Assembly: GCA_963693285.1 (NCBI GenBank) | Contig: OY848918.1 | Span: 17,521,067-17,585,066 of the forward strand | Source of the DNA: Xestospongia muta | Taxonomy: Eukaryota; Porifera; Demospongiae; Haplosclerida; Petrosiidae | Length of the DNA: 64,000 nt | Direction: 5' to 3' | In this document: positions 31,880 to 44,856 of the stretch, in pieces | Layout of the letters: every line of letters starts with the position of its first letter | How positions within the stretch are numbered: the first letter of the stretch is position 1 | Program-made: the position numbers and the translations under genes | The notes under the pieces: generated by a model | What the model was told of the DNA's origin: nothing | The model's input: only the letters and a program-made list of their open reading frames with translations | Database searches by the model: none

Positions 31880-33282
31880 TATGAGAGGTAATTAGTGCCA
31901 AAATAACCACATTAAAAAGGCTAGTGAAATCTTACAGAGGGTAGTCAAGTTTTAAATAAGGTGGTGGTTTTTTAAAATAGGGTAGTGGATTTTTAAAAAT
32001 AGGTCAGTGGTTTTTAATGTAGTAGCATCTAAAAAGGGTAGTCCTTTTGTGCAAATGATAGTCTATTTTGAAGTAGGGTAGTGTCTTTAGAAGTAAGATT
32101 GTGTCTTTCAATGTGATAACATTCAATAAGTTTGTGTTTTTTAAGTTGTATAGTATCTATCAATGTAAAATATTTTTTTGTCTTGTAAAATGACGGTCTA
32201 TTTAAAAAAGAGTAGTGTTTTACAGATACAATACTGAGCTTGAGTTCTTTTACTGAATGATAACATTCAAATAGAATATATAGTCTATTATAAATATAGG
32301 GTAGTGTTTTAGAAATCAGTATAGTGTTTTCAAAGTGATAAGATTATAATTTTTAAATTGTGTAAAATGATGGTCTACTTTAAATAAGACAAATCTTTTA
32401 GAAATAGGATAAAGTCTTTGGAGCAAAGTAAAGACTGTTACAAGATTGTATGGTTGATAAATACAGGGGTTGGGTTGAGGGGGCTGGCTCCAGATATTAG
32501 GGAATTTGAATGTCTTCAGAGTGCAATGTAAATGTTCCAAGAGCAGTAGTATTTATCTCTAGTTTAACACAGGTACATGTACATGTATATTTGTTATTTC
32601 AAGACAACAATATTGCTCAATGTACCTAATTGATGATCACATTATTGTTATTCAAATGTCAGAAATGCTGTTGTCCCAACTCTACACAGAAGATATAATG
32701 TTTCCATTGAGTCAGAGTAAGCATAAAAAGACAATGACTTAAATTAACTAGCAAGGTGAGTTCAAGACTGACAATTCCCTTTGCTAAAAACCTTCAAATC
32801 TATTTTCTCAAGGGTTTGGAGTGCTCCTAAAGTCTAACAATGAAGTATAAATTGAATACAGAATGTCATCACCATGTTCGTGTTATCGTGGCAATCTGAA
32901 GTTGATTAGACTTATAATACCACTAGTATATACAACCTTATCGACTCCTCATTATCCGTATGCATGAGCTTCATTGTTCAATTATCATTCTTCATTATCT
33001 GTTTTCGGCCTGCTTTATCTCTGTCTCCTCTCTCTCTCTCTCATGACATATTATTATATATTAAACTTTAACATTTATTTATCATATTTCCTTAGTTTCA
33101 TATCAATCTAACAACTCTTATTTAATTGAAATTATTAAAACAGTCTGTGCATGCACAATCACCAGGTAGTCATTTGGCTGTCACAAATATTAACTGTTAT
33201 TACACTATTGTTTAATAAAAATGGGTGTTGTGTACTCGATACCAAAACATCCAAACGTGGTATCGAAGCATAAAGTATCCCA
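31880..33282. repeat. Terminal inverted repeat, left, transposon A
   Basis: Pairs with 43440-44856 in reverse complement, with indels. The inner limit is where gcataaagtatccca (left) pairs with tgggtactctatgc (right). Near the inner end a segment containing ggtttggagtgct and aatgaagtataaattgaata (32815-33080) is repeated further in (33288-33510), an internal duplication of part of the repeat. Confidence 0.8.
31920..32330. repeat. Subterminal GGGTAGTG repeats, transposon A left end
   Basis: A motif of the form (A)GGGTAGT followed by a T-run recurs about every 25-60 bp: near 31936, 31978, 32037, 32074, 32210 and 32298, with variants between. The mirror set (cactaccct) is present in the right repeat and in both ends of B. 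Clustered subterminal motifs usually bind the transposase; that role is inferred. Confidence 0.6.
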
Positions 33283-33488
33283 CCCAGGGTTTGGAGTGCT
33301 GCAAAGAATCCCAAAGTAGAACCCGTCTTGAACAAACAATGAAGTATAAATTGAATACAGAATGTTATCACCAAATTCTCTTTATTGGAGCAATTTGAAT
33401 TTGATTATACTAACAATACCACCAGAGTCTACTACATTATCAGCTCCTCATTATCTCTACAGCCCACTATGTCTCTGTTTCTGTCCAC

Positions 33489-33594
33489 TTTCTCTCTCTC
33501 TCTCTCTCTCTCTCTCTCTCTCTCTCTCTTCTCTCTCTCTCTCTCTCTCTCTCTCTCTCTCTCTCTCTCTCTCTCTCTCTCTCTCTCTCTCTCT
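33489..33594. repeat. (CT)n microsatellite in transposon A
   Basis: Nearly pure CT run of about 105 bp. The corresponding tract in B (47922-48122) is about twice as long. Serine-leucine frames across it are artefacts. Confidence 0.9.
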
Positions 33595-41239: not shown

Positions 41240-43351
41240 TTAACATAATCTGTTCTTCACAAAACCAACTGTTGCTGAATACAAGTCAATGCCATAGTTG
41301 GTTGAGGGAGAAAGTACTTGAACTGCTTCCTGTAGCTCAGAATAATCATTTTCATTCAGAGGACATTCTATAGCAGGAACAATAATTTCATTAGGAGTAC
41401 TCAGATCATCTTCTGTTGATAACGGACCATCCCAGTCAACTCCATATAGTTGTGCCTCCTCCTGTTGAAAGAAACAAGATTAGTCAAGTGCATATAGACA
41501 TTTGTTAACACAAAATATAATAGATAATGTACTGTTATTGTGCTCTACGGGTTATATGGCATGAGAGGTGAGGTCAAGAGACTGATACAGCATGAGGCAA
41601 AGCTGAGTACTGTATCAGTCTTGAGACCATAACCCAAGTAACCTGTATAACACTAACAGTACATTATCTGGTTTACCATTACTTGAACTGTACTTTCATT
41701 TCTTGTCAGTTTTACTGTTTGAATTCATTTGTTGCTATGTGTTACTAAGCACAAGCCAATTAATTTGAGGAAGCAACTAAAGAGAATTGGAAAGTGTGAA
41801 AAGGAAAGGAAACCCGAGCAGGAAAGGAAGATATGGTCAACCTAGATAGCCAGCATGAAACATTCCTTAGAAAACAATCAATAATCTCAATGAAAATTAA
41901 TGTTAGTATCATATTGAACGTGCAATATCAGTCATATTGAACGCTTTCTGCTTTATGGAAATATAGAATGGGCGGTGTCTTTAATCCATCCATGCAAGTA
42001 ACAATATATATATATATATATATATAAACAAAATACCTCTGTTAGCTCATCAGGTGGAGGTTGTCTACATAGTCCACTAATCCAAAGCTGCATTGGACTA
42101 AGATATCCTTCAGATGACAGAGGATGGTTGTTCCAAGCATCCTGAAAGAGACGTAGTGCAGAGTTTATTCGTCGTATATATACATAATGGAGACAAAAGA
42201 GATGTACTTCATCATCAATATCCAATATGTCCTGATCCTCCATATAGTGAAAGAGTTGGTAGAAAAGAATAGTACATTGCAGAAATACATCACGCCAGAG
42301 TCTCTCAATTCTTTGGTTGTGAACACTGCGTCCAGTAATGAAGCTACCTCGACCTAGACCTCTGAGAGGATGTTGAAGCATGAATGCTGCAACACGTACA
42401 TTTTCACCACCTCTATCTGAACGTACTCTACTTGGCAGTCCAGTGATTCTTACTTGGTCAACAAATAGTTGCAGGACAGTTTCTGCTCGATTATTGTCAG
42501 CGCAATGTAGGTATATTATTCTACGACTGAATCCATCAATACATCCATGAATGACAAACCTCCATCTATAAATTAAATAGAAAATGATTATAGACCCAAT
42601 TATGATATAAATGTGATAATTGTAACTGATTAAGTAGATAATGACTTCACCTGATCAATTTATGATTGCTATCTATGTGATATAGAGACCTTGGTGCTGC
42701 CACTCTGTATTCTCGCCTATGAAGACATCTTAATTGACGCATCATTGTTCCTTCAGGACAGATTCTTCTTTGGGAGTCTCTGATTCTCCACTGTTGTATT
42801 CTAAACCCTTGAGATAATAGATGCCCATTCATTTGACGGTATCCGCACATGGGGAATTGATCATGAATGCTTTTTATCAGTCTGTCCAAGTCGTTGTCTG
42901 TTACTTCTGAATACTGGGAACGAATAGAAAGACCATACTGGGACAGTCTTCTGTGAAGAGTTCTCACAGATACCCCAAGCATATCTGACATTTGGGGGAC
43001 AGTGAAGTGATTTTCAACGAGATACAACAATTGCTGTCTTGGAATAACAAATCTAGGCCGGCCAATGAGTCCATTGTACTCAACTGGGGGTGAAGATTGC
43101 TCTGTATTTTCTGAAGCACGATCTCTGACGTTCTTAAGTATGTCAAGAGCAAATCTAATAAAGTTGAGTCCTGCCTGTTCATTCAAACTTAGTACTCTTA
43201 TACTTTCTGCAACAATAAATTCTCGATAAACAAGCTCCAAACAGAGTAAAGATGATTCTAAAACATCAAAGCATATGTTTCTTCCGTCTGAGAGAGCTTC
43301 AAAGTTGCTAGTGATCCGCCTAAGAGCATTTATACTCCACTCAGAAGACAT
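41240..43351 (-). CDS. IS3EU-type DDE transposase, copy A
   Basis: Three exons on the minus strand: 42651-43351, 42037-42565 and 41240-41461. They join in frame to 483 aa with no stop. Residues ~1-90 are a family-specific helical region. [15 protein letters not shown], then [19 protein letters not shown], forms a helix-turn-helix at about 115-150. [20 protein letters not shown] (about 180-200) is like the second HTH of bacterial IS3 transposases. The catalytic core has HIDSNH (first Asp), RSDRGGENV (second Asp) and [11 protein letters not shown] (Glu), with 36 residues between the second Asp and the Glu. The C-terminal exon has YGVDWDGP and NYGIDLY, known from the animal integrase-core family (rva_4-like). 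It should cut and join the TAT...ATA ends. Intron 2 holds a short (TA)n tract. It converges on the HECT gene. Intact in both copies. Confidence 0.85.
41523..41668. mobile_element. 146-bp hairpin MITE nested in transposon A
   Basis: Ends gataatgtactgtta and taacagtacattatc; the arms continue inward to agactgatacag / ctgtatcagtct, giving a ~60-bp imperfect stem. It lies in intron 2 of the transposase gene, just upstream of exon 3 on that strand's reading, and is present at the same place in B (55887-56032), so it predates the split of A and B. Confidence 0.75.
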
Positions 43352-43439
43352 AGTTCACTTTAGCCCCGCACCAAGTAAAGTAGAATACCTGGGTACGAGG
43401 CTGAATTCACTTATACTGAACCCGGAAATCCGTTAATGC

Positions 43440-44856
43440 TGGGTACTCTATGCTTCGATACTGGTATTGAGTACACAACACCCATTTTTAATTAACAATA
43501 GTGTAATAACAGTTAATATTTGTGACAGCCAAATGACTACCTGGTGATTGCGCATGCACAGACTGCTTTAATAATTATAATTAAATAAGAGTTGTTAGAT
43601 TGATGTGATTAAACTAAGGAAATATGATAAATAAATGTTAAAGTTTAATATATAATAATATGTCATGAGAGAGAGGAGAGGAGACAGAGATAAAGCAGGC
43701 CGAAGACAGATAATGAAGCATGATAATTGAACAATGAAGCTCATGCATACAGATAATGAGGAGTCGATAAGGTTGTATATACTAGTGGTATTATAAGTCT
43801 GATCAACTTCAGATTGCCACGATAACACGAACATGGTGATGACATTCTGTATTCAATTTATACTTTATTTTTCAAGACTTTGAGAGGACTCCAACTCTTG
43901 ACAAATAGATTTAAAGGTTTTTAGCAAGGGGAGTCATCAGTCTTGAACTCACCTTGCTAGTTAATTTAAGTCATTGTCTTTTTATGCTTACTCTGACTCA
44001 ATGGAAATATTCTTCTGTGTAGAGTTTGCACAAATACAACATTTCTGACATTTGAGGAACAATGATGTCATCGTCAATTAGGTACATTGAACAATATTGT
44101 TGTCTTGAAATAACAAATATACATGTACATGTACCTGTGTTAAACTAGAGATAAACACTACTGCTCTTGGAACATTTACATTTCACTCTGAAGACATTCA
44201 AATTCCCTAATATCTGGAGCCAGCCCCCTCAACCCAACCCCTGTATTTATCAACCATACAATCTTGTAACAGTCTTTACTTTGCTCCAAGAACTTTATCC
44301 TATTTCTAAAAGATATCTGTCCTATTTAAAGTAGACCATCATTTTACACAATTAAAAAATTATAATCTTATCACTTTGAAAACACTATACTGATTTCTAA
44401 AAATTAAAAGAACTCAAGCTCAGTATTGTATCTGTAAAAAACCTTACTCTTTTTTAAATAGACCATCAGTTTACCAGCCAAAAAATACTTTACATTGATA
44501 GATACTATACAACTTAAAAAAACACAACCGTATTGAATATTATCACACCAGCCAAAAAATACTTTACATTGATAGATACTATACAACTTAAAAAAACACA
44601 ACCGTATTGAATATTATCACATTAAAAGACACAATCTTACTTCTTAAGACACTACCCTACTTCAAAATAGACTATCTTTTGCACAAAAGGACTACCCTTT
44701 TTAAATGCTACTACATTAAAAAGCCACTACCCTATTTTTAAAAATCCACTACCCCATTTTTAAAAACTACCACCATATTTAAAACTTGACTACCCTCTGT
44801 AAGATTTCACTAGCCTCTCTTTAATGTGGTTATTTTGGCACTAATCACCTCTCATA
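43440..44856. repeat. Terminal inverted repeat, right, transposon A
   Basis: Reverse complement of 31880-33282. It contains a ~75-bp direct duplication (accagccaaaaaatac through aatattatcac at about 44474-44548, repeated at 44548-44622) that the left repeat lacks. B has the same duplication, so A and B come from one parent. Confidence 0.8.

What the first reader, a model, noticed from the sequence alone, without database searches (positions are those of the whole stretch)
31880..44856. A ~13-kb IS3EU-like transposon with proven insertion and a ubiquitin-ligase cargo
The element has TAT...ATA ends, ~1.4-kb inverted repeats, an IS3-like DDE transposase and a multi-exon HECT ligase gene inside one insertion unit. 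The inverted duplication supplies an empty site: 243-bp MITE intact at 17067-17309 against 186 + 63 bp split halves, the 6 extra bases being the gtttac duplication. Ends and duplication size agree with IS3EU as I recall it. I do not know of a described IS3EU carrying a HECT gene with introns; this pairing may be new.
Basis: partly seen in the sequence, partly recalled or inferred. Interest (0 to 1): 0.88.

Follow-up and report, generated by a model that had tools for sequence, protein, structure and literature searches.

The report
IS3EU-like transposon carrying HECT ligase gene
A large cut-and-paste DNA transposon in this genome carries, besides its own transposase, a multi-exon gene for a HECT-type ubiquitin ligase, and the same pairing recurs in three separate transposon families, so the ligase looks like a long-standing part of these elements rather than a chance passenger.

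Summary
The element spans 31880-44856, flanked by GTTTAC duplications. An empty copy of its target, in the inverted duplication, aligns straight across the junction. The genome has at least seven full-length copies with these ends (six of them 99.1-99.4% identical); four have perfect 6-bp duplications. All seven hold an 11-exon HECT gene, or its remains, and a convergent 3-exon IS3/IS481-like transposase.

New here: two further families, with other ends and transposases about 50% identical, also have TATG...CATA ends, 6-bp duplications in some copies, and a related HECT gene. In one, the HECT gene forms a large inverted repeat around the transposase; in the other, both genes lie on one strand. 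Of 35 strong transposase hits, 31 have this HECT gene close by.

Corrections: the window copy's HECT lost its active-site cysteine in a 133-bp deletion shared by another copy elsewhere with its own duplication. Only one of seven HECT frames is intact, against five of seven transposases. Recent copies show neutral change in HECT but constraint in transposase. HECT is standing cargo but not needed in cis, most likely a trans-acting accessory aimed at the host. No held paper contains both 'IS3EU' and 'HECT'.

The parts
31874..31879 (.). left copy of 6-bp target duplication GTTTAC
31880..44856 (.). copy A, the element of the finding (12,977 bp)
31880..33244 (+). left inverted-repeat arm
43462..44856 (-). 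right inverted-repeat arm
44857..44862 (.). right copy of GTTTAC
36980..37627 (+). HECT gene exon 1 (216 aa); its N-terminal domain was found at 39 loci, 35 of them tied to these transposons
37685..37790 (+). HECT exon 2, zinc-finger-like CxxC..H..C motif
   Evidence: motif read by eye, no Pfam match over its cut-off
38227..38306 (+). HECT exon 3
38359..38432 (+). HECT exon 4, UIM-like motif (PF02809 18.7 bits, below the cut-off of 21)
38482..38647 (+). HECT exon 5
38695..38826 (+). HECT exon 6, within the part that matches solved HECT domains
38874..39050 (+). HECT exon 7
39370..39652 (+). HECT exon 8
39757..39873 (+). HECT exon 9
39988..40029 (+). HECT exon 10
40940..41039 (+). HECT exon 11, crippled: 133-bp deletion after 40953 removes the active-site Cys and shifts the frame
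   Evidence: end points worked out from these
42651..43351 (-). transposase exon 1 (helix-turn-helix-like region, catalytic D1)
42037..42565 (-). transposase exon 2 (catalytic D2 and E)
41240..41461 (-). transposase exon 3
46314..59243 (.). copy B, second full-length copy in the window; no target duplication
51212..55403 (+). copy B HECT gene, 11 exons, last exon 55171-55403 with active-site Cys (TASTC); one in-frame stop in exon 7
17067..17309 (-). intact 243-bp MITE in the inverted duplicate: empty site of copy A
15674..21057 (-). inverted duplicate of the flanks of A (up to the left end of B), with neither insertion

Best explanation
This is a recently active IS3EU-like cut-and-paste DNA transposon. 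Its DDE transposase cuts at TATG...CATA ends and inserts with 6-bp duplications (shown from sequence). A HECT ubiquitin-ligase gene with its own N-terminal domain, a zinc-finger-like motif and a UIM-like motif has been part of this transposon lineage since before three families with transposases about 50% identical parted (the pairing is shown in one genome; a single acquisition is inferred). The ligase most likely works in trans: a copy that expresses it ubiquitinates a host protein, in a way that helps every related copy to escape silencing or to complete transposition (inferred). That would explain why single copies lose the ligase without losing mobility, while the gene persists over long times.
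For: Seven full-length copies, A-F 99.1-99.4% identical outside a variable stretch, G about 97%; perfect 6-bp duplications in 4 of 7; empty site. Family 2 ends with 6-bp duplications in 6 of 10 end pairs; family 3 in 1 of 2 copies. N-terminal exon at 39 loci, 30 within 10 kb of a transposase-domain hit (one of these hits weak, 26 bits); 29 of 35 transposase hits of 100 bits or more have the exon within 10 kb, against 0.19 expected, and two more carry HECT pieces on reading: 31 of 35. Control: 0 of 36 HECT hits of 41 bits or more lie within 10 kb of a strong transposase hit; I take these for the host's ordinary HECT genes. The active-site Cys motif is kept in families 1 (TASTC), 2 (TASTC) and 3 (SSIC) (read by eye). 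Not needed in cis: A and D share the active-site deletion and each has its own duplication; variable codon sites among A-F are 13 synonymous: 6 nonsynonymous in transposase, 7: 27 in HECT (stops counted as nonsynonymous; Fisher p = 0.001; HECT sites 440: 1615).
Against: HECT shows no purifying selection among recent copies and only 1 of 7 frames is intact, which also fits a passenger now decaying. Between the two family 2 copies compared, transposase looks neutral too (2 S: 10 N), so old copies are poor witnesses. Family 3's HECT is divergent: its last exon scores 20.2 bits, below Pfam's cut-off of 23.9. One strong transposase locus (C6:7274899) shows no HECT in the 8 kb read; three more without the exon were not read. 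Gene conversion could also have spread the A/D deletion. No expression, target or activity data, and no other animal could be searched.
Confidence: 0.6

Rival explanations
1. Passive passenger: an ancestral element captured a host HECT gene once; it has been carried along since and does nothing for the transposon.
For: Neutral pattern in recent family 1 copies (7 S: 27 N); 6 of 7 HECT frames broken; E lost about 1.9 kb of the gene and fragments H and I show none of it.
Against: Three families whose HECT proteins are only about 28-37% identical in the aligned blocks still keep the N-terminal domain, HECT and the active-site Cys motif. A useless 11-exon gene should have vanished over that span.
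Confidence: 0.25
2. Not cargo but segmental duplication: HECT and transposase genes happen to be neighbours at a host locus that was copied.
For: Tandem arrays of family 3 copies exist (C1:3.64-3.78 Mb, C2:15.78-15.97 Mb).
Against: Copies sit at unrelated places with precise ends and different 6-bp duplications, and one has an empty site. The two genes are convergent in families 1 and 2 but on one strand in family 3.
Confidence: 0.02
3. Separate captures: each family took up a HECT gene on its own, perhaps by transfer between transposons as reported for TET/JBP genes in fungi.
For: Orientation differs: convergent in families 1 and 2, same strand in family 3. Cargo transfer between transposons is in print (PMC12730594, passages).
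Against: The N-terminal domain joined to HECT is shared by all three families, and 35 of its 39 loci are tied to a transposase hit, to family ends or to a truncated copy; the other four, in the C2 array, were not read. This favours one source.
Confidence: 0.25

Closest known systems
IS3EU / GingerRoot DNA transposons (PMC10045372, passages seen)
   Same: TA..TA ends, 6-bp duplications, DDE transposase related to IS3/IS481, no HHCC domain upstream of the core
   Different: carries a HECT ligase gene; 0 held papers contain both words IS3EU and HECT. Repbase itself could not be searched.
TET/JBP-carrying IS3EU elements of fungi (PMC12730594, passages seen)
   Same: an IS3EU with accessory genes beside the transposase, thought to act against host silencing; transposase and alpha-kinase in opposite orientation
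   Different: the enzyme is a dioxygenase, with a kinase gene, not a ubiquitin ligase; hosts are fungi
IS481EU of parabasalids (PMC10045372, passages seen)
   Same: related transposase; TNT..AYA ends also fit TAT..ATA
   Different: IS481EU duplications are about 4, 15 or 25 bp, here 6 bp; autonomous IS481EU encode a single protein
G2E3-like repeat elements in Cottus fish (PMC5638112, passages seen)
   Same: of 122 unclassified repeat candidates, 27 had blastx matches to various proteins, G2E3 (a ubiquitin ligase; HECT type as I recall) being one of three named
   Different: no transposase or ends described in the passage; a link to this family is a guess

Membership tests
IS3EU/GingerRoot | TA..TA termini | tested here: met
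   TATGAGAGG..CCTCTCATA in 7 of 7 family 1 copies; TATGGAAT in family 2, except one CATGG end in a diverged relative; TATGGGG in family 3, 2 copies
IS3EU/GingerRoot | 6-bp target duplication | tested here: met
   perfect in 4 of 7, 6 of 10 and 1 of 2; the others show none
IS3EU/GingerRoot | IS3/IS481-related DDE transposase | tested here: met
   NCBIfam IS3 8.2e-10 and IS481 9.4e-9 for family 1, IS481 1.9e-13 and IS3 4.9e-8 for family 2, all below curated cut-offs, as expected of distant relatives; PF24764 5.3e-82
IS3EU/GingerRoot | no HHCC motif upstream of the catalytic core | tested here: met
   loose pattern search: no match in family 1; the only match in family 2 starts at residue 381, after the catalytic E at 321; family 3 not scanned
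IS3EU/GingerRoot | groups with Repbase IS3EU transposases in a tree | not testable with these tools
   Repbase/Dfam not held; the protein database was switched off
IS481EU | duplications of about 4, 15 or 25 bp | tested here: not met
   6 bp
HECT E3 ligase | HECT domain with active-site Cys | tested here: met
   met in copy C (PF00632 1.7e-11; TASTC); not met in the window copy A, where it is deleted
HECT E3 ligase | ubiquitin transfer activity | not testable with these tools
   needs a bench assay

The most novel reading that the evidence does not exclude
HECT ligases with this N-terminal domain are a standing, trans-acting tool of a whole lineage of animal IS3EU-like transposons, and part of the large 'G2E3-like' HECT gene sets of animals (recalled) are transposon genes: a selfish element that uses the host's ubiquitin system to keep itself mobile.
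Probability: 0.35. Interest if true: 0.78.

Novelty: new variant of a known kind. Interest (0 to 1): 0.6.

Why it matters
The anti-silencing tools of transposons named in the passages of PMC12730594 (TET/JBP, SET methyltransferase, the Vandal regulator) act on DNA or histone marks or on their control. A ubiquitin ligase kept through three families would point to protein modification as another front, and would mean that some multi-copy HECT genes in such genomes are mobile. Young copies, an empty site, one intact HECT copy and two copies with a shared dead active site make the need for the ligase testable.

Tried and rejected
Structure: AlphaFold of exon 1 alone gave mean pLDDT 46.9 and was not used. 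No relative of the N-terminal domain or the transposase in viral contigs, nor of the transposase in prokaryote genome contigs; the exact left-end 20-mer is absent from viral contigs. The paper searches gave no HECT-carrying IS3EU (listings). The ORFs between copies A and B found no Pfam family at E 0.01. 'Host locus' for the HECT: of the nine N-terminal loci without a transposase hit within 10 kb, three were read (L054, L055, L056) and match family 3 DNA at 89-96% without its transposase, two of them with the family 3 left end. One more lies between a pair of family 2 ends (C1:33.43 Mb) and one 4.6 kb from such an end (C6:5953375); the other four lie in the C2:15.8-15.97 Mb array and were not read.

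Rows left out of the counts: 53 of 138 transposase hits were typed in (all 35 of 100 bits or more among them, so '30 of 39' is a lower bound) and 51 of 52 N-terminal hits (two adjacent pieces of copy G taken as one). Of the six strong transposase hits without the exon, L057 covers two, L058 one, and three were not read (C1:3586726, C1:11912555, C12:3783282). All whole-genome counts are lower bounds by the tool's own statement.
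Full report
OBSERVATION. The element of the finding is real and its coordinates are right to the base. It runs from TATGAGAGG at 31880 to CCTCTCATA at 44856, between two GTTTAC copies. Its long inverted arms are there. Joining the flanks with one GTTTAC removed gives a 3358-column alignment at 97.1% to the inverted duplicate at about 15674-21057, unbroken at the junction. So the insertion is shown by duplication and by empty site. The 243 versus 186 + 63 bp sum is exact.

COPIES. The window lies in an unnamed assembly of 158 Mb. 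The left end finds 21 places, a lower bound: 14 are the two ends of seven full-length copies (A-G), three belong to two fragments (H, I), and four are short matches whose surroundings were fetched but not analysed. A and B are both in the window. A-F are 99.1-99.4% identical outside a variable stretch, in a near-star tree; G is about 97%. Perfect 6-bp duplications flank A (gtttac), C (aatgac), D (tatcct) and E (aatata), 4 of 7; B, F and G have none. For B, the inverted duplicate carries on past B's left end into sequence not found on B's right side. B therefore probably inserted after the duplication and later lost its right flank, or is a recombinant.

GENES. Transposase: three exons on the minus strand, 483 aa, GT-AG introns, DDE at 227/284/321 with 56 and 36 residues between; intact in A-E (5 of 7), one stop in F, frameshift in G. 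It matches PF24764 (5.3e-82), and NCBIfam IS3 and IS481 below their cut-offs; no solved structure is close (best E 0.063). HECT: eleven exons on the plus strand, GT-AG introns, 685 aa in the one intact copy, C. The exon model is mine, from splice sites and HECT similarity; no transcript was seen. That protein matches PF00632 at 1.7e-11, has a UIM-like motif below the cut-off, and a zinc-finger-like motif that I read by eye. Solved HECT ligases are found by sequence at both ends of the domain (best 5e-7). In the other copies: A and D share a 133-bp deletion that takes out the active-site Cys (D also has a frameshift), B has one stop, E lost about 1.9 kb, F and G have frameshifts.

SELECTION. 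Among A-F the transposase has 13 synonymous and 6 nonsynonymous variable sites, HECT 7 and 27, stops included (Fisher p = 0.001). The HECT ratio is what sites alone predict (440: 1615). Together with A and D, which share a dead HECT and each have their own duplication, this says that a copy needs no working HECT of its own to move. A caveat: gene conversion could also spread the deletion. Between two family 2 copies both genes look neutral (transposase 2 S: 10 N, HECT pieces 3 S: 20 N); between two family 3 copies HECT pieces have 5 S: 11 N and transposase 1 S: 2 N, too few to judge.

OTHER FAMILIES. A genome-wide look for HECT (112 hits) and for the transposase domain (138 hits) showed pairs of the two at other places. 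Family 2 has ends TATGGAATACAAACC; nine end pairs lie about 14.5-17.8 kb apart and a diverged tenth 11.3 kb, and 6 of the 10 have perfect 6-bp duplications. The insides of only two were read (L026-L031), each short of its right end. There the HECT gene is doubled as a long inverted repeat around a single-exon transposase, and the right HECT copy ends early, just after the active-site region. Family 3 has ends TATGGGGTGTG and is 6.4 kb with 231-bp inverted repeats; HECT and transposase lie on the same strand, and one of two copies has the duplication aaatca. Transposases are 48-52% identical between families; HECT blocks 28-37%. Single HECT pieces score 27.3 bits in family 2 and 20.2 in family 3, the latter below Pfam's cut-off of 23.9, but family 3 matches the family 1 HECT protein at 3.5e-20. 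The first HECT exon of the window, which has no Pfam match, was found at 39 loci, 30 of them within 10 kb of a transposase hit. Of 35 transposase hits of 100 bits or more, 29 have the exon within 10 kb, against 0.19 expected from genome coverage. Reading three of the six others showed HECT beside two and none in 8 kb beside the third, C6:7274899. As control, none of the 36 HECT hits of 41 bits or more lies within 10 kb of a strong transposase hit, while 13 of all 112 HECT hits do.

MECHANISM. Shown from sequence: transposition with 6-bp duplications, recent activity, association with HECT in three families, loss of HECT in single mobile copies. Inferred: the ligase acts in trans on a host factor. 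In print, fungal IS3EU elements carry TET/JBP and alpha-kinase genes and are thought to escape silencing through the former (PMC12730594, passages), so an accessory gene against host control is the nearest precedent. Which host protein is hit, and whether the effect is on silencing or on repair of the cut site, is open. I give the accessory reading about 0.45-0.5 on its own, and the anatomy above 0.95.

KNOWN OR NEW. IS3EU is described in PMC10045372 (passages) by TA..TA ends and usually 6-bp duplications; GingerRoot is not separable from it by these features. All features that could be tested are met; placement in a tree with Repbase entries could not be tested. None of the 5.39 million held papers contains both IS3EU and HECT, but Repbase Reports and most subscription journals are not held. 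A passage in PMC5638112 names G2E3 among the protein matches of unclassified repeat elements in a fish, a lead towards the same thing elsewhere. I rate it a new variant of a known kind.

Noticed in passing
46314-59243: Second full-length copy in the window, without a target duplication; its left end falls exactly where similarity to the inverted duplicate (15674) stops, so it has probably lost or swapped its right flank.
   Followed up: partly
33960-35433: Copy A has about 1.4 kb here that differs from the other copies, as if replaced.
   Followed up: no
L026, L028, L029 (C1:25.49-25.51 Mb): Family 2: HECT gene doubled as an inverted repeat around the transposase; paired N-terminal exons at 10 loci and three at an eleventh, C1:33.43 Mb.
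   Followed up: partly
C2:15.78-15.97 Mb and C1:3.64-3.78 Mb (L054, L056 read): Arrays of family 3 HECT copies, spaced roughly 25-55 kb, the C2 array without a transposase hit; possible home of a tamed HECT gene.
   Followed up: partly
L058 (C6:7271001-7279000): Transposase relative (53% to family 2) without HECT in the 8 kb read: a HECT-free relative or a domesticated gene.
   Followed up: partly
25783-25982: 200 N, an assembly gap or withheld stretch in the window.
   Followed up: no
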